Shown here piece by piece: positions 22,699 through 32,900 of a stretch of DNA of 64,000 nt. Both the position numbers and the translations under genes were made by a program. The DNA comes from Gimesia sp. (GTDB taxonomy: Bacteria > Planctomycetota > Planctomycetia > Planctomycetales > Planctomycetaceae). The notes beneath the pieces were generated by a model. That model did not search any database and had not been told where the DNA came from. It saw only the letters and a list, made by a program, of their open reading frames with translations. Where the stretch lies: positions 124,001 to 188,000 of the forward strand of contig NZ_JAVJSQ010000031.1 of the NCBI RefSeq assembly GCF_040219335.1. Direction: 5' to 3'. Each line of letters starts with the position of its first letter. Within the stretch, counting starts at the first letter, position 1.

Positions 22699-24816
22699 TT
22701 AGTCGCGGTAGAAGCGAGTCAGTTCTTCGAACAGCAGAGGATCGCGGATCGAATCGCTGGCGAGACGAGCCCGGAACCGCTGGTTGCCTTCGACACTGCC
22801 GCGTACGATGACCTGGAACTGAACCGAATCACCAGGTGCCAGACCTGCCAGAGATTTGAAGACGACCACACCGTTCTCAGCGATGTGCTGAGTAGGACCG
22901 GTGGCAGAGATCAGCTCAACTCCAGGAGGCAGTTCACAGGAGACAGAAACGTTCTGGGCAGACTTACTACCATCGTTCTTGACTACCACGTTGTAACCTG
23001 TTTCAGCTCCGATTTCGACAGGATCGTTCAGGTCGGCAATTTCCAGGACCAGCTGGGCGACCCCTTCGATACGTGTCTGAATCTGTGCATCGGATTTCAC
23101 GTTGTGTTCAGACAGAGCACGTACGTGGTGCACGTAGTTGCCGATAGTTTTGGTCTTCAGTTCGACGTTGACATTGGCTGACTGACCGGGCTCCATACGT
23201 CCCAGGAACCAGCTGATGGTGGAATCTTCAGGATTGAACTGACCGCCACGATCGGCTTTGACGAATTCAAATCCTTCTGGAATTTTATGCAGCACGCGAA
23301 CGTTGTTGGTAGCGGCGGCACCGTCGTTGACGGTGGAAATTGTGTACTGTGCAGAACGGCCTTTGTAACGCAGTCCGGGACCTTCGATGGCGACCTGAAC
23401 CTTGGGAGCGATCACATTCACACGAGCCTGAGTTTCCTGAGCCAGGCCACCTTCAGCTTTAGCGACAACTTTCACAACCTGTTCGCCACCCAGGACAGCT
23501 GCCAGAGCCAGACGGATAGTGCGGGTTTCGCCAGGATTCAGCGAACCGACCTGCATCTGCAGATACTCGGCAGTCACATGTTCCAGACCTTTAGGAATTT
23601 CAGCTTCGAGCACAACGTTGTGCAGTGTACCTGTTCCCGGGTTGGAGATGGTGACTGACTGTGAGGCGGGCTCACCAATCATGACATTGGTTGGACCTTT
23701 GACTGCAACCTGCAACAGAGGCTCAGCAACCATGAAGGACTCAGTCAGAGTGTTGGTAAACCGAACATTCGCTGCGGCGGTGATAGCACCTCGCTGGCTG
23801 GGGATCATTGAGATCTCAATGGTTTTGGTTTCACCGGCGTTCAGTGAATCAAACTTCCATTCAAGATGATCCTGGCTGGCAATGGGCCGGGGAGTGGCAT
23901 CTGTCAGACGAACTGATACCGGGAAGAAGGCTTCCACAACGACGTCCCTGGCAGATGCTTTACCTTCATTGGTGACTTCCAGTGCGAACTCGCATTCCTG
24001 GCCAACATTGATTTCACTTTTCTTAACCCATTTGTGAGACACTTTGGCCTTCGCGACTTCAGAGGCGGTTCCGACAGGCTTCACCTGCACGGCTGCTGCA
24101 CGACGTTTCTGAGGTGTCGAACTGATGGTTACACCGGAAGGCTGAGTAGCAGTTTCTTCCTGTGCAGCTTTTCCAAAGGTCAGATGATGTTTGTTTTCTA
24201 CAGTCTGACGATCCGGGATCCGGGGAATTGTCAAACCGGGTGCCTGAGGAGCAGGCTGTTTGAATTCGGTTGGCGACCGGAATGGATTTTGACCACTGCC
24301 GGCACTGACCTGCTGAATTCTACCTTGTGTGCCCTTCTGGTGCTGAAATTCAGCATGCACGATATTCTTTTTGGACTGATCCGCATTGAACTCCTCAAAA
24401 CGGTACCGCTTCTGCTCTCCAGCCGGTTCCGCGTGGTCAACCTGCTGAAAAGCGGACTGCTTGACTTCAGCCTGCTGTTGCTTCTGCTCCAGGCGACGGT
24501 AAGGGCGTTCCTGACCGAACAGCTCCTTGTAGTAGTTCGGTACCTGGGACATGCGGGCTTTACCGGTGGGCTGGTACTCTGCACCAGGCTGAGTCGCAGT
24601 CTGCTTTGGCTGGGAAATGGTGATATTTCCCGAGGTGCCGGCAGCTTCACCCGTAGACTTCTGTCCGGAGAAGTACTGAATACTGGATTTGGAATTGGAA
24701 GGGGGAGCAGAATCAAAGGGAGACTTTGATTCCATCATGCGATCATCGGCGGTTGCGATACTCGCACTCATTACCATGGTTGAAAATATCGCGAGCATCT
24801 TTTTTCCGCGTCGCAT
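22699..24816 (-). CDS. exported DUF11-repeat protein
   Basis: A 705-aa secreted protein. A signal peptide (MRRGKKMLAIFSTMVMSASIATA) is followed by a low-complexity Gln/Pro/Ser-rich half (about 25-240) and then four Ig-like DUF11 repeats of about 115 residues. Each repeat has the pattern NxGxxxAxNVxVxxxxPxGxxxxxA...LxPGExxxxxx (for example TNEGKASARDVVV, SNPGTGTLHNVVL, NDGAAATNNVRVL, NDGSKSAQNVSVS). Such proteins are typical of planctomycete cell surfaces. The start is ATG 24816, with AAGGAG seven bases upstream; the frame is open for about 160 bases before it without a better start. Confidence 0.85.
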   Translation of the reverse strand: MRRGKKMLAIFSTMVMSASIATADDRMMESKSPFDSAPPSNSKSSIQYFSGQKSTGEAAGTSGNITISQPKQTATQPGAEYQPTGKARMSQVPNYYKELFGQERPYRRLEQKQQQAEVKQSAFQQVDHAEPAGEQKRYRFEEFNADQSKKNIVHAEFQHQKGTQGRIQQVSAGSGQNPFRSPTEFKQPAPQAPGLTIPRIPDRQTVENKHHLTFGKAAQEETATQPSGVTISSTPQKRRAAAVQVKPVGTASEVAKAKVSHKWVKKSEINVGQECEFALEVTNEGKASARDVVVEAFFPVSVRLTDATPRPIASQDHLEWKFDSLNAGETKTIEISMIPSQRGAITAAANVRFTNTLTESFMVAEPLLQVAVKGPTNVMIGEPASQSVTISNPGTGTLHNVVLEAEIPKGLEHVTAEYLQMQVGSLNPGETRTIRLALAAVLGGEQVVKVVAKAEGGLAQETQARVNVIAPKVQVAIEGPGLRYKGRSAQYTISTVNDGAAATNNVRVLHKIPEGFEFVKADRGGQFNPEDSTISWFLGRMEPGQSANVNVELKTKTIGNYVHHVRALSEHNVKSDAQIQTRIEGVAQLVLEIADLNDPVEIGAETGYNVVVKNDGSKSAQNVSVSCELPPGVELISATGPTQHIAENGVVVFKSLAGLAPGDSVQFQVIVRGSVEGNQRFRARLASDSIRDPLLFEELTRFYRD

Positions 24817-25328
24817 TGTGTTTCTCCTTACCGATAGGAACTTACTGCTGGATAGGGATGTTTGAGTTAATGGATTTGACATGATGAGAATTGTGAGAGC
24901 TGTAGTATCTGGATCATGCACAGGAAGGTTTTCTACTTTTATCCATCTCTCTCTATCGGGTGTAACGATTCCCAAAATTGAACGAGTTGTAATGATTTTT
25001 TAAAATAAATCGGAATTATAAGCTTTTCCGGTTATTTCGATTATACCGCTCCCGGTATTTCAAACAGCACAACAATACACATAAACCACTACCAACATAC
25101 AACTTAAGCACAACCCCCTCTTCCAAAAGCGATTCCTGGATCATCCACAGTCCCCTAACCTCCCCATTCTGGCAAACAGGTCCCTGCAGGTGAAACCGGG
25201 CCTTCAAATCCTGCAAAACACGATTTTCATTTTCTGGCGATTGACTCATGGGTACTTAGACTCACAATGACTGTTAGCTTACGGTCCGGCAACGGATCCC
25301 TTATTTTCGAGTTATAAAGCAGGCAAAT
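24817..25328. other. intergenic region with one doubtful small frame
   Basis: About 510 bases between the divergent DUF11 and lipB-like genes. A TATAAT on the minus strand (25015-25020) could serve the DUF11 gene, but no matching -35 is seen. One 77-codon minus-strand frame lies within it (listed separately). Confidence 0.4.
25016..25249 (-). CDS. doubtful small protein with one hydrophobic segment
   Basis: A 77-codon frame with an ATG start. The product has a hydrophobic stretch (VVLKLYVGSGLCVLLCCL) and a basic tail. There is no convincing ribosome site, and no homologue I recognise. It lies in an AT-rich divergent promoter region where chance frames are expected, so it is more likely not a gene. 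Confidence 0.2.
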   Translation of the reverse strand: MSQSPENENRVLQDLKARFHLQGPVCQNGEVRGLWMIQESLLEEGVVLKLYVGSGLCVLLCCLKYRERYNRNNRKSL

Positions 25329-26075
25329 ATGAGTTTATCCGCTTCAGAGACAGGCCATTCCATGCGTCAGCATAAGACGCTGAAGGTCTACCTGCTGGGT
25401 GGTGTGGACTTTGATTCCCTGCTGACACTGCAGGAACGGGCTCTGCAGGAGATCCATTTCCAGCAGGACGAGTCCGCTATTCTGTTTGTCTGTGAACACC
25501 CGCCCATCGTTACTGTGGGGCGTGAAGGCAGCCATTACCAGCTGTCCGGGGCCTATCACGACCTGAAAGCGAAACAGATTGAAGTTCGCTGGACGAATCG
25601 GGGAGGCGGAGCTCTGCTACATGCCCCGGGGCAACTGGCCGTTTATCCCCTGTTCCCTCTCAAACAGCTGGGCATTGGCATCAGCGGATTCCGGGATCGT
25701 CTGCAGCGGGCGACAATCAGTGCAGCCGGCGAGCAGGGCGTTGACTGTGAAACCTGTCCGGATGACTCAGGAATTTTGGGCCGTTGTGGACAGTTTGCCT
25801 TTCTGGGGGCTGCGATCAAATCCTGGATTTCTTACTATGGTTTGTATATTAATGTGTCTCCCGATATGAAACTGCAACGTCTGATCGACGCCAATCGATA
25901 TGACCACCGCGTGACTTCCCTGTCGGCAACGCTCACGCGGGAAGCCAGTATGGGTTCGGTTCGCGAAAGCATGATTCGCAACCTGGCTCAGCAGTTCGGC
26001 TATCCGGATCCCCACATTTTTACACGACACCCCTTACTGCATCGAGTAAAGAAGAAAGTTTATGTCGACACTTAA
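25329..26075 (+). CDS. LipB-like octanoyltransferase family protein lacking catalytic residues
   Basis: A 248-aa protein of the LipB (lipoyl/octanoyl transferase) family, which normally moves octanoate from acyl-carrier protein to lipoyl domains through a Cys thioester. The fold motifs are clear: CEHPPIVTVGREG, NRGGGALLHAPGQLAVYPL (H98 conserved) and YYGLYINVSPD. Residue-by-residue comparison with E. coli LipB shows that the catalytic Lys (K135, in KICSLG) is Q155 here and the nucleophile Cys (C169, in NPCGY) is N189. The canonical mechanism is therefore not possible. It overlaps lipA by 14 bases. It may be a non-catalytic partner, or act as a ligase-like enzyme by another route (inference). 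Confidence 0.85.
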   Translation: MSLSASETGHSMRQHKTLKVYLLGGVDFDSLLTLQERALQEIHFQQDESAILFVCEHPPIVTVGREGSHYQLSGAYHDLKAKQIEVRWTNRGGGALLHAPGQLAVYPLFPLKQLGIGISGFRDRLQRATISAAGEQGVDCETCPDDSGILGRCGQFAFLGAAIKSWISYYGLYINVSPDMKLQRLIDANRYDHRVTSLSATLTREASMGSVRESMIRNLAQQFGYPDPHIFTRHPLLHRVKKKVYVDT

Positions 26076-26961
26076 TATCATCACCGATCCCGCCCCCGCC
26101 CCACGGCAGCGTCTTCCCAAGTGGCTCAAACGGCCTATGCCGAAACCCGGCATGGCTTTCACCAGCAACGTGATCGAAGACCTCAACCTGGTCACCGTCT
26201 GCGAAAGTGCCAAATGCCCGAATCGCACCGAATGCTGGTCGCATAAAACTGCGACCCTGATGATCCTGGGAAATGTCTGCACGCGACCTTGCGGTTTCTG
26301 CTCGATCGCCAAGGGGAAAACTGAAACCGTTCAGTTGGACGAACCCGAACGCGTAGCGGAAGCAGCCGCCCGTCTGGGCCTCGAACATGTGGTGATTACC
26401 TCTGTCACGCGTGACGACCTGCCCGACGGTGGGGCAGAGCACTTCTATAACTGCATCCTGGCAGTCCGCGAACGAACCGGGGCAGACATTGAAGTCTTGA
26501 CTCCCGACTTCCGTGGCAATCGTGATGCCATTCAGCGGGTGATTGAAGCTCATCCTGATGTGTTTAACCACAACACCGAAACGGTGCCCCGTCTGTATCA
26601 CCGCGTTCGTCGGAACGCCGTCTATCAACGGACCCTGGATCTGCTGAAGCAGGTGAAAGATACTGATCCGAGCATCGTCACTAAAAGTGGTTTGATGCTG
26701 GGGCTCGGCGAGACACGCGAGGAAATACTCGAAGTCTGTGCCGATCTGCGGGCCGTTGGTTGCGATATTGTCACCATCGGCCAGTACCTGCAGCCGACGC
26801 CTGAGAACCTGCCGGTTGAGCGTTTCCTGCCGCCGGAAGAATTCGACGAAGTGGGTGATCAGGTGCGGGCACTGGGATTCAAACTGGTAGCCAGTGGTCC
26901 TTTCGTCCGTTCCAGTTATCATGCAGGCGAAATGGCATCGGTACTGGGGAAAGAGTCCTGA
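26062..26961 (+). CDS. lipA: lipoyl synthase
   Basis: A radical SAM enzyme that inserts two sulfur atoms into octanoyl groups on lipoyl domains. The auxiliary cluster is bound by C47-x4-C52-x5-C58 (CESAKCPNRTEC) and the SAM cluster by C73-x3-C77-x2-C80 (CTRPCGFC). The C-terminal RSSY serine motif, which ligates the auxiliary cluster, is present (VRSSYHAGE). At 299 aa it is standard. Everything needed for activity is intact, in contrast to the two odd neighbours. The start overlaps the lipB-like gene by 14 bases, and the stop abuts the next ATG. Confidence 0.97.
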   Translation: MSTLNIITDPAPAPRQRLPKWLKRPMPKPGMAFTSNVIEDLNLVTVCESAKCPNRTECWSHKTATLMILGNVCTRPCGFCSIAKGKTETVQLDEPERVAEAAARLGLEHVVITSVTRDDLPDGGAEHFYNCILAVRERTGADIEVLTPDFRGNRDAIQRVIEAHPDVFNHNTETVPRLYHRVRRNAVYQRTLDLLKQVKDTDPSIVTKSGLMLGLGETREEILEVCADLRAVGCDIVTIGQYLQPTPENLPVERFLPPEEFDEVGDQVRALGFKLVASGPFVRSSYHAGEMASVLGKES

Positions 26962-27243
26962 ATGTCGACTCCGATCACGGTTCCTTCCCTGGAAAACCAG
27001 GACCAGAAGCTGACAGTCAGCCTCTGGCTGACACGAACGGGAGAGCCTGTTAACCGGGGAGACCGGGTTGTCGAACTTCTGATTCCCGGTGTGACGTTTG
27101 ATGTGGCTGCCCCCTGCACCGGAACACTTGCCCGTTGTGAATGTCGATCCGGAGACGAAGTTCACGAGGGAACCGTGCTGGGCTGGATCAAATCTTCCGA
27201 AGCCAGCCCGCCAGACGATTCAGTCGCCTCTGGACCTGAGTGA
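26962..27243 (+). CDS. lipoyl/biotinyl-domain-like protein without the acceptor lysine
   Basis: A 93-aa protein that aligns over residues 5-76 with the lipoyl domains of 2-oxoacid dehydrogenase E2 subunits: LTRTGEPVNRGDRVVEL, then PGVTFDVAAPCTGTL, then CRSGDEVHEGTVLGWI. In true lipoyl domains the beta-hairpin tip reads DKA; here it is P42-G43-V44, so the lysine that carries lipoate is absent. The only lysines (K16, K77) are far from the tip. The ATG directly follows the lipA stop codon, so the gene is translationally linked to lipA. The C-terminal 17 residues are a disordered acidic tail. Possible roles: a decoy or scaffold for LipA, or a structural relict. Confidence 0.75.
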   Translation: MSTPITVPSLENQDQKLTVSLWLTRTGEPVNRGDRVVELLIPGVTFDVAAPCTGTLARCECRSGDEVHEGTVLGWIKSSEASPPDDSVASGPE

Positions 27244-27260
27244 TCAGAAACGGAACTGCC

Positions 27261-28322
27261 ATGACAACCGACCAGATCCGAGGTCATCAAACCATTCTGG
27301 AAATGCTCGACCGGGCCCTGTCCCGCGGACGCCTGCCGCACGCGCTGCTGTTCTCCGGTCCGGTGGGCGTGGGCAAGAACCGGGTCGCCCGTTATCTTGC
27401 CCAGTGCCTGTTCTGCGAACAGACTCCTTCCGACCAGCTCAGCTGCTGTCACGAATGTAACTCCTGCAAACAGATGGCCGCCGGTACGCATCCCGATTTG
27501 ATCAGCGTAGAATGTCCTCACGACAAAGCCATCCTGCCATTAAGTCTGATCATCGGCAGCGAGGAGCGACGGGGCCGCGAAGGGGTCTGCTATGAGATGT
27601 CACTTCGCCCCATGACCGGAAACCGACGGATTGCGGTCATCGACGACGCTGACAAAATGAATGCCGAGAGCGCCAACGCACTTTTGAAAACCCTGGAAGA
27701 GCCCTCAGCGAATTACCTGATGATTCTGATCGCCAGTGAGTTGGATGCAATCCTGCCCACCATTCGCTCCCGCTGCCAGCTGATCCGGTTTGCTGAACTC
27801 TCTGCAGACGATGTATCCGAACTGCTGCTGGAACATCAACTGGCGGAGTCTCCCGAACAGGCGCAACAGGTTGCCCGACTGTCGGGTGGCTCGCTGGATG
27901 TCGCCAGCCAGCTGCTGGATGAGAACCTGCAGGAACTCAGGACGAGTATCACACGACTGTTGTGCCAGCATCCCTTCCGTCCGCAGGCGTTTTCACAGGC
28001 GGTCATCAAAGCCGTGGATGATATCGGCGGCAATACTGCTGCTCAGCGAAAAACTGCTCACTGGATCCTGCATTTCTGTGCCGACTTCTATCACCAGGCA
28101 TTGCAGACTGCTGCCGGACAAGAGTTGACGGTGAACAATGCGCAGATCGACAAATTCGTGAACGGATTCCCCGGCTCGACCGAAGACCGGATTGAAAAAC
28201 TGGGTTCGCTGCTGGATCGGCTGCTGGAAACCGAAGAACAGATCGATAGGAACGCCACGATCAGCCTCTGTATCGAAAACCTGAGCGAAGACCTCCGGGC
28301 GCTGCAGAAAAGCACTCCCTGA
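27261..28322 (+). CDS. holB: DNA polymerase III subunit delta prime
   Basis: A clamp-loader AAA+ subunit (353 aa). N-terminal GHQTILEMLDRAL and RLPHALLFSGPVGVGKNRVA (Walker A), a zinc-binding Cys cluster (CLFCEQ...CCHECNSCKQ), the DDADKMNAESANALLKTLEE block and the sensor-1/arginine-finger-type IRSRCQ are all present. The ATG at 27261 has a CGGAA element seven bases upstream; a GTG at 27240 that overlaps the preceding stop codon is an alternative start adding seven residues. The gene follows the lipoyl-like gene in the same transcript and precedes ricT, as in Firmicutes (holB-yaaT). Confidence 0.92.
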   Translation: MTTDQIRGHQTILEMLDRALSRGRLPHALLFSGPVGVGKNRVARYLAQCLFCEQTPSDQLSCCHECNSCKQMAAGTHPDLISVECPHDKAILPLSLIIGSEERRGREGVCYEMSLRPMTGNRRIAVIDDADKMNAESANALLKTLEEPSANYLMILIASELDAILPTIRSRCQLIRFAELSADDVSELLLEHQLAESPEQAQQVARLSGGSLDVASQLLDENLQELRTSITRLLCQHPFRPQAFSQAVIKAVDDIGGNTAAQRKTAHWILHFCADFYHQALQTAAGQELTVNNAQIDKFVNGFPGSTEDRIEKLGSLLDRLLETEEQIDRNATISLCIENLSEDLRALQKSTP

Positions 28323-28523: not shown

Positions 28524-29408
28524 ATGAATAACGAAGTCTCAGGTTATATTGTCCGCTACGGGTCAACCCGCATGATTGGCGAGTTCTCCGCCAAGGGCTC
28601 TGATGAGCTGCCACGAAATGCCTCTGTCATTGTTAAAAGTGATCGCGGTCATGAATGGGGTGAAATACTCTCTCCCGCTACGGACCGCGTGCGTTCCTTC
28701 ATGAAAGATACCAAAACCGTCGGCCGCATCATTCGCCCCGTCACCGACGATGACTATCGCCTGCGCGACAAGAATCGACACGAGGAACGCACAGAGTTTC
28801 TAGGCTGCCAGGATCTGGTGAAAGAACATAAGTTGCAGATGCAGCTGGTCGATGTGGAACATATTTTTGGTGGGGAAAGGATCATCTTTTATTACCTGGC
28901 CGAAAAACGCGTCGACTTCCGCGAACTGGTCAAAGCGCTGGCCCGCAAATATCGATCACGGATTGAAATGCGACAGATTGGCGTCCGGGATGAAGCCAAA
29001 CTGCTGGCTGATTACGGCGACTGTGGCAAAACAGTGTGTTGCGGAACACATCTGACCGAAATGCCACCGGTATCCATGAAGATGGCCAAACTGCAGAAAA
29101 CCTCACTCGACCCCAATAAGCTATCCGGTCGCTGTGGCAGACTCAAATGTTGCCTGCGATACGAGTACGACACTTACCGCAGTTATAAAAAAGAACTGCC
29201 CCCGGTCGGTTCATTCGTCGTCACGGAACAGGGGGAGGGAAAAGTCACCAATCAGGATATCCTTTCGGAATGCGTTCAGGTGATCTATCCTGATTCGCGA
29301 AAATCAATTGTCCATAGAAAAGATATTCAGGAAGTCATCAAGAAGAAAAAAGGGGAAGGCCAGCCCCCCGGGAACGGGAAATCACTCAATCAAAAACCGG
29401 CTCGCTGA
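28524..29408 (+). CDS. ricT: PSP1-domain protein, RicT/YaaT-like
   Basis: A 294-aa PSP1-domain protein. In Bacillus, RicT (YaaT) forms a complex with RicA and RicF that holds [4Fe-4S] clusters and supports RNase Y-dependent RNA maturation. The conserved cysteines are C167, C172 and C173 (GDCGKTVCCGTH) and C204, C209 and C210 (GRCGRLKCCLRYE). The N-terminal region (about 5-70) is beta-rich and the C-terminal 25 residues are a basic low-complexity tail. It lies 200 bases after holB, keeping the synteny seen in Firmicutes. Whether RicA and RicF partners exist here cannot be seen. Confidence 0.88.
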   Translation: MNNEVSGYIVRYGSTRMIGEFSAKGSDELPRNASVIVKSDRGHEWGEILSPATDRVRSFMKDTKTVGRIIRPVTDDDYRLRDKNRHEERTEFLGCQDLVKEHKLQMQLVDVEHIFGGERIIFYYLAEKRVDFRELVKALARKYRSRIEMRQIGVRDEAKLLADYGDCGKTVCCGTHLTEMPPVSMKMAKLQKTSLDPNKLSGRCGRLKCCLRYEYDTYRSYKKELPPVGSFVVTEQGEGKVTNQDILSECVQVIYPDSRKSIVHRKDIQEVIKKKKGEGQPPGNGKSLNQKPAR

Positions 29409-30269: not shown

Positions 30270-32900
30270 ATGGGGTTAACTCTAAGGATGAGGTTTTCTA
30301 CCGTCGCTCGCTACTCGCCCGTTCGTCCTGTTCCCAAACTCATCACTCTAACCATCAGCACGCTCTTCTGCTCCGCTCCCTTGCTGGCAGCAGAAACATC
30401 AGATGCCTCGCCACCCGTGGCCGCATCTGAATCCGTCGTCATCAGCTGGCTACTTGCGATTGCAGGTGCGATCTTCGCCCTGTTTACCGCTTATCGCTTT
30501 TTCTCCTGGATGGTCGCGCAGTCCGAAGGTGACGCCCGCATGAAGACCATCGCCGAGCACGTCCGTGAAGGAGCCCGTGCTTACCTGGACCAGCAGTTCA
30601 AGGTCGTGACCCTGTTCTTTGCCGTGGTCTGTGCATTGCTGGCCTTCATGGCCTTTGGCCTCAACACTCAATCACACTGGGTCCCCTTCGCCTTTTTGAC
30701 CGGGGGTTTTTTCTCTGCACTGGCAGGCTGGTTCGGTATGCGAACCGCTACACTCGCCAGTGCACGTACCGCCCATGCGGCGAAAGAATCACTCAACAAC
30801 GGCCTGCAGGTCGCGTTCCGCAGTGGTGCAGTGATGGGACTCGTCGTTGTGGGACTCGGACTGTTGGACATCAGTCTCTGGTTCGGTGTTCTGCACTGGA
30901 TCGTCAAGATGCCTCTGGCGGAGATCACCGTCACCATGCTCTGCTTTGGTATGGGAGCCAGCAGCCAGGCACTGTTTGCCCGCGTGGGTGGTGGTATCTT
31001 TACCAAAGCCGCGGACGTCGGAGCCGACCTCGTCGGTAAAGTGGAGGCAGGCATCCCCGAAGACGACCCGCGTAACCCGGCAACGATTGCAGACAACGTG
31101 GGCGACAACGTAGGTGATGTCGCCGGCATGGGGGCAGACCTCTATGAATCGTACTGTGGTTCCATCCTAGCCAGTGGTGCCCTGGGTGTCGCCGCATATC
31201 ATGGTTATCCCAAAATGCAGATGATGTGCCTGCTGCTGCCGATGTGTCTGGCCGCAGTCGGTATCTTCCTTTCGGTCACCGGAATCTTCATGGTGAAAAC
31301 AGAAGAAGGTGCCTCTCAGAAAAACCTGTTGAAAGCACTGGCTAAGGGAATCGACACCGCCGCCTTCTGTGTGATTGTCGCCTCCCTGGGCCTGGTCTGG
31401 ATCATGCTGGTAATTCCTTCGCAGTCCGCGGGAATCCCGGAAGATTCTCCACTGCTGACGGGGAACAAACTGTTTGGTGTCTTCGGTGCGATCGTCTCCG
31501 GTCTGGTTGCAGGCTGGTTGATCGGGAAATGGACCGAGTATTCCACCAGTGATGAATTCAAACCGACCCGCTTCATCGCGGATCAGTCTTCAACCGGTCC
31601 AGCGACAGTGATCATCGCCGGGATCGCCGAAGGCTTTTACAGCGTCTGGGTGCCGATTCTGGTGATTGGTGTCGCTATCATCGTCGCCTTTGGCTTGTGT
31701 ACCGGCTTCGACTTCCAGAACTCACAGGTTTTCGCGATGGGCCTGTATGGCGTTGCGATTGCCGCTGTGGGGATGTTAAGCACACTCGGGGTAACACTCG
31801 CCACCGATGCCTATGGTCCGATTGCTGACAATGCCGGCGGTAACGCGGAAATGAGCGGTCAGGAACCGTTCGTACGCCAGCGAACCGACGCCCTGGACAG
31901 CCTGGGGAATACGACAGCTGCTACCGGAAAAGGCTTCGCGATCGGCTCAGCCGCTTTGACAGCGCTGGCTCTGTTGGCTGCCTACGTGGAAGAAGTCCGC
32001 ATCGGGTTTGAACGCTGGGTCGAGAACTCAGCCATCGTGCAAACGGTGACCGATGACCCTTCAAATGCGTCTGCACTGAAGCTGAGTAAAAACTGTATTG
32101 CGATCCGTATTCCTGACAAAGACGGCAACGCTCCCAAACACAACAACATGGGTTACCTGCTGTTCCCCGCTCTGCACCAGACTCAAATTACGCCCGGGCG
32201 AACCAAAATCGAAGAAGCCGAGGTGGGATCGATCATCAACGGCCTGAACATCACAGAGCTCCTGTTGCGCAGCGACTGTGTTGAAGTCAAAAAAGCGACC
32301 GTGCCTGATTTCTCCCGCTTCTATAATTTCTCGCTGCTGAACCCCAAGGTACTGGTTGGGATCTTTTTCGGCGTGATGATTGCCTTCGTCTTCTGTGCGA
32401 TGACCATGAAGGCTGTGGGCCGCGCCGCGGGTGCGATGGTGGACGAAGTCCGGCGGCAATTCCGTGAAATCGCAGGGATTATGGAGAACGAAGCCGAACC
32501 GGATTACGCCGCCTGTGTCGAAATCAGTACAGCTGCGGCACAGCGTGAAATGATTCTGCCCGCGATGCTGGGCCTGCTCTCCCCGGTTGTCGTGGGTGTC
32601 CTGCTGGGAGTCCCCGGCGTAGTAGGCCTGCTGGTGGGAGCCTTGACGAGTGGGTTCGCAGTTGCCATTATGATGGCTAATGCCGGTGGTGCCTGGGATA
32701 ATGCTAAGAAGTACATCGAAGCAGGCGCACATGGCGGCAAGGGAACTGATGCGCACAAAGCCACAGTAGTAGGTGATACCGTAGGTGACCCGTTCAAGGA
32801 CACCAGCGGTCCCAGCCTGAATATTCTGATCAAGTTGATGAGTATGGTTTCTGTTGTCATAGCCGGTTTTATCATCCAATACGCATTAGAGCTATTTTAA
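30270..32900 (+). CDS. hppA: membrane-bound ion-translocating pyrophosphatase
   Basis: Couples PPi hydrolysis to H+ or Na+ export across the membrane. An N-terminal signal-like helix (about 20-40) precedes some 16 membrane segments. Catalytic motifs: D249-V-G-A-D-L-V-G-K257-V-E, the following [20 protein letters not shown] segment, and a second Asp-rich cluster near the C-terminus ([13 protein letters not shown]). The [10 protein letters not shown] motif has Ala (A550, A551) rather than Lys, the K+-dependent type. At 876 aa it is longer than most: about 100 extra residues, rich in charged and polar amino acids, sit between AAYVEEV and FSLLNPKVL in a loop. The start ATG has no good ribosome site; ATG 30288 is an alternative. 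Confidence 0.95.

What the first reader, a model, noticed from the sequence alone, without database searches (positions are those of the whole stretch)
25329..27243. Lipoate cluster with an active-site-less LipB and a lipoyl-domain protein lacking its lysine
Seen: in the LipB-like protein the catalytic Cys is N189 and the catalytic Lys is Q155, whereas the GHxPGQ-type His is kept. Downstream, lipA has all six cluster cysteines and the RSSY serine. The third gene aligns along the whole lipoyl domain, but the DKA tip is PGV. The three genes overlap or abut (14-base overlap; stop-to-ATG contact) and run into holB. Known: LipB needs the Cys/Lys dyad, and lipoyl domains need the Lys. Inferred: this may be a regulatory or scaffold module for LipA, or part of an unreported route of lipoate assembly. 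It is the strongest candidate for an undescribed system in the window.
Basis: partly seen in the sequence, partly recalled or inferred. Interest (0 to 1): 0.72.

Follow-up and report, generated by a model that had tools for sequence, protein, structure and literature searches.

The report
Conserved dead LipB with lysine-less carrier
A class of planctomycete bacteria widely keeps, next to its lipoic-acid synthase gene, a relative of the enzyme LipB that has lost its catalytic residues and often a small lipoyl-domain protein that has lost its attachment lysine, which suggests that an old enzyme-substrate pair was turned into a non-catalytic helper.

Summary
The cluster is real and is not local decay. 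The window (a Gimesia-type planctomycete) encodes a LipB-fold protein (here LipBx), LipA, a 93-aa lipoyl-domain protein (LD) and HolB. LipBx was found in 147 of 170 genomes of the order and 14 of 19 class genomes outside it. Of 161 loci read, 142 have lipA directly downstream. The catalytic Lys stands in 2 of 144 readable order rows and 0 of 14 class rows; Cys at the catalytic column in 0 order rows and 3 class rows. The 30 best-scoring canonical LipBs from other classes of the phylum have both. The LD tip lysine is Gly in 38 of 41 homologues, never Lys. One outgroup has lipB-lipA-LD with these residues intact. A LipM-type gene is in 161 of 170 genomes and probably does the chemistry. Best explanation (inferred): LipBx is a pseudoenzyme that still binds the octanoyl/lipoyl arm or lipoyl domains and assists LipA; LD is its locked partner. 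One reader detail is wrong: the Cys aligns with A188, not N189.

The parts
25329..26075 (+). LipBx: LipB-fold protein, 248 aa, catalytic Lys->Gln155, catalytic Cys->Ala188; R91-G92-G93, H98 and P100-G101-Q102 kept; extra C-terminal HP motif at 234-235
26062..26961 (+). lipA, lipoyl synthase, intact (both cysteine motifs and RSSY); the only match over the lipA cut-off in the genome
26962..27243 (+). LD: stand-alone lipoyl-domain protein, 93 aa, tip Lys replaced by Gly43
27240..28322 (+). holB, DNA polymerase III delta prime; overlaps the LD stop; beside LD also in some genomes where LD is away from LipBx

Best explanation
Shown: LipBx is one clade of LipB-like proteins spread over the class. 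It has lost the catalytic Lys in nearly all rows read and Cys at the catalytic column in all rows but those of one lineage, while several residues of the acyl-binding motifs (Arg91, Gly93, His98, Gly101, Gln102, Gly171, Asn175) are conserved. It usually lies directly upstream of an intact lipA. LD is a lipoyl domain whose lysine has become Gly in nearly all homologues. One outgroup has the same gene order with the key residues of LipB and LD intact. Inferred: an ancestral octanoyltransferase and its free lipoyl carrier, encoded with lipA, were relieved of chemistry once a LipM-type enzyme supplied octanoyl groups. LipBx now works as a non-covalent binder of the C8/lipoyl arm or of lipoyl domains, and positions or protects octanoylated GcvH/E2 for sulfur insertion by LipA. 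LD, which cannot be acylated, occupies the acceptor-docking face of LipBx (or of LipA) as a permanent partner or competitor that sets its availability.
For: LipBx in 147 of 170 order genomes and 14 of 19 class genomes outside the order. The 38 LipBx tips of a 70-tip tree form one clade, ultrafast bootstrap 88. Lys 2 of 144 readable order rows (L081, L279), 0 of 14 class rows; Cys at its column 0 of the order rows, 3 of 14 class rows; the 30 best-scoring canonical LipBs of the phylum have Lys and Cys in 30 of 30. Readable order rows: R91 145/145, G93 144/145, H98 136/145, G101 145/145, Q102 144/145, G171 144/144. lipA downstream on the same strand in 142 of 161 loci. LD tip Gly 38 of 41, never Lys. 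Outgroup L124: LipB with Lys and PCG, lipA, 80-aa LD with VDKM. LipM-type gene in 161 of 170 genomes, C and K motif in the 30 best-matching loci. Six of seven LipBx-less order genomes with a single LplA/B-family protein have LipA. Purifying selection. Folds: LipBx best match LipB 2qhs, LD matches lipoyl domains. Published precedent (PMC9307952, passages): an E. coli LipB K135A/C169A double mutant is called catalytically inactive, was used to follow C8-ACP interaction, and still gives CoA contact signals.
Against: No partner, ligand or complex was tested. The middle Gly of the RGG loop is not conserved (G92 in 105 of 145 order rows, Asp in 23), and the same paper reports that a G72A/G73A mutant of E. 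coli LipB is 39% and R71A 21% active, so binding may differ between lineages. That paper also lists K135A alone at kcat 0.04 against 0.22 per min, so loss of Lys alone need not abolish activity; the lineage L141, L142, L144 keeps Cys. Eight order rows have a Cys one or two columns before the old site and L340 has one in an inserted stretch. Lys is present in L081 and L279. LipBx is absent from some genomes with LipA. LD was found in 54 of 147 order stretches held, many of them short, and is unlinked in others. The LipBx model is weak (mean pLDDT 60, much of the active-site region under 50). In G086 no other LplA/B-family protein passed the cut-off. The active outgroup operon rests on one genome.
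Confidence: 0.4

Rival explanations
1. LipBx is still an acyltransferase that uses other residues: for instance the conserved Cys55, the conserved Arg152 near the old Lys site, or, in one lineage, the old Cys without its Lys.
For: C55 is Cys in 138 of 145 readable order and 13 of 14 class rows; R152 132 of 144 in the order. L141, L142, L144 keep a Cys at the old site, with Leu (L141) or Arg (L142, L144) at the Lys column. Eight order rows have Cys at columns 186-187. E. coli LipB K135A keeps some activity (PMC9307952, passages). LipM and LipL are recalled to have their Cys at other positions. G086 (listed 100% complete, 220 contigs) has LipA and a lipoyl domain with ETDK but no other LplA/B-family protein over the cut-off.
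Against: Cys at column 55 also occurs in 7 of 30 canonical LipBs that keep the dyad, so it need not be catalytic. Columns 187-189 are unconserved in the order. LipM-type genes are in 161 of 170 order genomes. G086 may miss a small stretch.
Confidence: 0.17
2. LD has nothing to do with lipoate any more: it is a small barrel-sandwich protein that hitch-hikes beside lipA or holB.
For: LD is unlinked from LipBx in a number of genomes: beside holB in L172-L174, in lipA-LD-holB without LipBx beside it in L166-L168, beside a MoCF and a TPR gene in L164, with the same gene pair in L159, L165 and L176. It is not seen next to lipA in many LipBx loci.
Against: It follows lipA directly in the own genus and in the distant L141, L142, L144 and, with its lysine, in the outgroup L124. 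Typing the tables into a script, 97 of 100 order genomes with a small LD at about 2e-16 or better also have LipBx (exceptions G103, G159, G165; G077 and G094 hold weaker LD matches without LipBx); the base rate of LipBx is 147 of 170, so this is a modest excess.
Confidence: 0.22
3. Both genes are relics in slow decay, kept by promoter sharing and translational coupling with lipA.
For: 23 of 170 order genomes show no LipBx match, some of them incomplete; the catalytic columns are free to vary.
Against: Spread over the class, dN/dS 0.10-0.17 for LipBx, conserved pocket motifs and a C-terminal His-Pro motif not seen in the canonical set; no stop codon inside any listed match.
Confidence: 0.1

Closest known systems
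LipB octanoyltransferase (TIGR00214; 2qhs, 1w66)
   Same: Fold, Arg/Gly of the RGG loop, H-x-PGQ motif, Asn175 region, lipA as neighbour
   Different: No Lys in 142 of 144 readable order rows, no Cys at the catalytic column outside one lineage, window protein 58.5 bits against a cut-off of 83.55, extra C-terminal HP motif
E. coli LipB K135A/C169A double mutant (PMC9307952, passages)
   Same: Both dyad residues absent; used there as a dead enzyme in binding experiments
   Different: Laboratory construct, not a natural conserved family
LipM octanoyltransferase / LipL amidotransferase
   Same: Same superfamily; a LipM-type gene co-occurs in the genome (L003)
   Different: LipM-type proteins read here keep Cys and Lys; LipBx of the window has neither
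Lipoyl domain of E2 (1ghj, 3crk, 1qjo) and free lipoate-binding proteins such as LbpA (recalled; PMC6067878 seen as listing)
   Same: Fold and length of a single lipoyl domain
   Different: Tip lysine replaced by Gly; cannot carry lipoate there
LplA-LplB bipartite ligases, mainly archaeal (PMC10332631, passages)
   Same: An LplA/B-fold protein working with a second small protein in lipoate assembly
   Different: LD is a lipoyl domain, not LplB; LipBx lacks the Lys

Membership tests
LipB octanoyltransferase | LplA/B catalytic-domain fold | tested here: met
   Pfam E 2e-25; Foldseek 2qhs E 4.6e-12
LipB octanoyltransferase | Catalytic Lys | tested here: not met
   Q155 in the window; Lys in 2 of 144 order and 0 of 14 class rows
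LipB octanoyltransferase | Catalytic Cys in the PCG motif | tested here: not met
   A188 in the window; Cys at this column only in L141, L142, L144
LipB octanoyltransferase | Score above the curated lipB cut-off | tested here: not met
   58.5 bits against 83.55 for the window protein; at least two class genomes do pass (206 passing, 204 matching genomes outside the class)
LipB octanoyltransferase | Octanoyl transfer from ACP to lipoyl domains | not testable with these tools
   needs assay
LipM octanoyltransferase | Cys in the FLCF motif plus Lys before GSAQ (motif as read here) | tested here: not met
   absent in LipBx; present in the separate gene L003 and in the 30 best-matching loci
Lipoylated carrier (E2 domain, GcvH, LbpA) | Barrel-sandwich lipoyl fold | tested here: met
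Lipoylated carrier (E2 domain, GcvH, LbpA) | Lysine at the hairpin tip | tested here: not met
   G43; Gly 38, Ser 2, Asp 1 of 41 homologues
LipA lipoyl synthase (26062-26961) | Both cysteine motifs and RSSY; equivalog score | tested here: met
   365.2 bits against 310.25; motifs

The most novel reading that the evidence does not exclude
LipBx and LD form a natural non-covalent relay, a dead enzyme locked to a dead substrate, that lets octanoyl or lipoyl groups made on GcvH by LipM and LipA reach E2 proteins without a LipL-type amidotransferase. This would fill the gap that PMC10332631 points to, where some LipM/LipA organisms lack LipL and an unknown replacement is considered.
Probability: 0.12. 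Interest if true: 0.85.

Novelty: new variant of a known kind. Interest (0 to 1): 0.58.

Why it matters
My searches (open-licence PMC only, and one search listed 15 of 617 papers) showed no description of a LipB-family pseudoenzyme conserved across a bacterial class beside an intact lipoyl synthase, often with a lipoyl domain that has lost its lysine. It offers a natural dead mutant for separating the binding and catalytic roles of LipB. It also gives a lead on how LipA finds its substrates, and warns that a LipB called by fold alone may lack the activity.

Tried and rejected
Local decay in this strain: rejected, since the losses are shared across the order and most of the class rows read.

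Relocated nucleophile at C55: kept only as a rival, because 7 of 30 canonical LipBs with an intact dyad have Cys there too.

Strict three-gene module: rejected, because LD is unlinked in a number of genomes and holB is a frequent neighbour of LD.

LipBx as the only octanoyltransferase candidate of the genome: rejected for the window's genome, since L003 has the LipM-type motif; not excluded for G086.

A first motif pattern for LipM was too narrow and found 6 of 30; a pattern rewritten after seeing those hits found 30 of 30. The 30 loci are the best matches to the own LipM and include 17 of the own genus, so this is a reading of the motif, not an independent test.

Selections and dropped rows: the 30 canonical LipBs (L101-L130) are the best-scoring matches, a biased set. 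In one search the own copy L031 was left out, leaving 70 rows, one of them L027. In one search the own copy L031 and the outgroup or E2 rows L107, L115, L124, L129 were left out, leaving 41; 19 unlinked LDs are not in that count (by eye none has Lys at the aligned place, but L167 has a Lys one residue earlier). In one search L031 was left out of the columns, leaving 146 order rows, of which one to three are gaps at a given column. The tree used 70 tips (38 LipBx), not all 161 loci.

On re-checking I lowered the best explanation from 0.42 to 0.40 and raised the still-catalytic rival from 0.15 to 0.17, because the middle Gly of the RGG loop is not conserved and K135A of E. coli LipB keeps some activity.

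Full report
What is there. The window lies in a 7.93 Mb genome (G000:C31:124001-188000) whose nearest named relatives in the collection are mostly Gimesia or Planctomycetaceae MAGs. On the + strand lie LipBx (25329-26075), lipA (26062-26961), LD (26962-27243) and holB (27240-28322). LipBx matches the LplA/B catalytic domain (2e-25) and LD the Biotin_lipoyl family (1.2e-5); the best NCBIfam match of LD is the N-terminus of a SucB-type E2 model (3.2e-10). LipBx aligns with T. thermophilus LipB (E 2.7e-19).

Other lipoate genes of the genome. There is one lipA over the lipA cut-off. Besides LipBx there are two further LplA/B-family proteins over the cut-off. L001 lies beside a gene that reads like dihydrolipoamide dehydrogenase (by its sequence; not tested against a library) and about 2.5 kb from an E2-type lipoyl domain with ETDKA. 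L003 has FLCF and K-x-x-GSAQ motifs of LipM type and lies beside a gene that reads like glycine decarboxylase (recalled resemblance). So the genome has candidates for the chemistry without LipBx.

Spread and residues. LipBx has a match in 147 of 170 genomes of the order and in 14 of the 19 class genomes outside the order that one search listed (a 15th weak hit in G315, E 0.0019, is not counted). In the phylum search 206 of 294 genomes had a lipB match over the curated cut-off. The 46 listed matching genomes of the class, own genome included, have best E-values from 1.2e-25 to 2e-6, while most others reach 1e-33 or better. As 204 matching genomes lie outside the class, at least two class genomes pass the cut-off. 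I then read all 147 order loci and 14 class loci. Leaving out the own copy, Lys stands at the catalytic column in 2 of 144 readable order rows (L081, L279) and 0 of 14 class rows; Gln is commonest in the order (104). No order row has Cys at the catalytic column; seven have one two columns earlier, one has it one column earlier, and L340 has one in an inserted stretch. Among class rows Cys is kept in 3 of 14 (L141, L142, L144), where the Lys column reads Leu, Arg and Arg. In the 30 best-scoring canonical LipBs of other classes both residues are present in 30 of 30. In contrast R91, G93, G101, Q102 and G171 are present in all or all but one of the readable order rows and H98 in 136 of 145; the middle Gly of the RGG loop varies (G92 in 105 of 145). 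A C-terminal His-Pro motif (H234 135 of 144, P235 139 of 144) is not seen in the canonical set. In a 70-tip tree the 38 LipBx tips form one clade with ultrafast bootstrap 88; its position among LipBs is poorly resolved (61 or less).

Neighbourhood. lipA follows LipBx on the same strand in 142 of 161 loci; 14 are separate and 5 lie at a contig edge. LD follows lipA in the own genus and in distant lineages. It also occurs elsewhere: with lipA and holB but without LipBx beside it (L166-L168), with holB (L172-L174), or beside a MoCF and a TPR gene (L164; the same gene pair in L159, L165 and L176). In one search, 143 of 170 order genomes match the LD profile at 1e-9, but this includes true E2 domains. 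By reading that table, 100 genomes have a small LD at about 2e-16 or better, and 97 of these have LipBx; with LipBx in 147 of 170 this is only a modest excess. The tip lysine of LD is Gly in 38, Ser in 2 and Asp in 1 of 41 homologues; among 19 further unlinked LDs none has Lys at the aligned place by eye, though L167 has one a residue earlier.

Origin. Genome G401, of the same phylum but another class, has an lpd-like gene (by its sequence), a LipB with Lys and PCG, lipA and an 80-aa LD with VDKM in a row (L124). This single case suggests that the operon began with an active transferase and a lipoylatable free carrier, and that both later lost the residues for the reaction. In L141, L142 and L144 LD has already lost its Lys and LipB its Lys, while the Cys remains, which hints at the order of loss.

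Is it functional? Within the genus dN/dS is 0.10-0.17 for LipBx and 0.10-0.29 for LD, against at most 0.03 for LipA. LipM-type genes are in 161 of 170 order genomes. Of 14 order or class genomes without a clear LipBx, 12 have lipA. So LipBx is maintained but not essential for having LipA. G086 is the exception that needs care: listed as 100% complete, it has LipA (L086) and a lipoyl domain with ETDK but no other LplA/B-family protein over the cut-off.

How it most likely works. In PMC9307952 (passages read) an E. coli LipB without Lys135 and Cys169 is called catalytically inactive and was used to follow the interaction with octanoyl-ACP; it still gave CoA contact signals. RGG-loop mutants were reduced to 39% and 21% activity, and K135A alone kept a kcat of 0.04 against 0.22 per min. 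The window's LipBx is a natural counterpart of the double mutant: dyad lost, pocket motifs kept. I infer that it binds the octanoyl/lipoyl arm or lipoyl domains and assists LipA, with LD as a partner that can dock but not be acylated. The binding and the partners are inference. The Cys-keeping lineage may still have activity. By my recollection of the E. coli LplA sequence, C55 corresponds to the pocket residue Trp37; this was not tested.

Literature. PMC10332631 (passages read) surveys LipB, LipM, Lpl, LipA and LipS1/S2 across GTDB; its main text has no word beginning 'planctomyc'. It says that LipB and LipM rarely co-occur and that some LipM/LipA organisms raise the question of an unknown replacement of LipL. 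My searches showed no paper describing a dead LipB or a lysine-less free lipoyl domain in Planctomycetes; only open-licence PMC papers are held, one search listed 15 of 617, and papers other than these two were seen as listings with abstract starts only.

Verdict. A real, widespread, unusual pair, best called a pseudoenzyme variant of LipB with a lysine-less lipoyl domain as an optional companion. The mechanism is open.

Noticed in passing
G086 (loci L086, L242, L257): Genome listed as 100% complete with LipA and a lipoyl domain with ETDK but no LplA/B-family protein over the cut-off other than LipBx; either an assembly gap or a case where LipBx or an unknown enzyme supplies octanoyl groups.
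   Followed up: partly
G094: Genome listed as 99% complete without a LipBx or LipA match but with a small LD (2.8e-14) and two LplA/B-family proteins; perhaps a gap at the lipBx-lipA locus.
   Followed up: no
L164:4029-5925, and L159, L165, L176: In one genus the lysine-less LD follows a MoCF-domain gene and a TPR gene instead of lipA.
   Followed up: partly
L141, L142, L144: A class lineage whose LipBx keeps a Cys at the catalytic column but has Leu or Arg for the Lys, with an LD whose Lys is already Gly: a possible intermediate stage of loss.
   Followed up: partly
window 28524-29408: Gene after holB (294 aa) looks like a PSP1/YaaT-type protein by its cysteine-rich stretch; recalled resemblance, not tested.
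   Followed up: no
window 30270-32900: 876-aa protein that looks like a membrane pyrophosphatase (HppA type); recalled resemblance, not tested.
   Followed up: no
window 22699-24975: 758-aa minus-strand protein with repeated DUF11-like segments; recalled resemblance, not tested.
   Followed up: no
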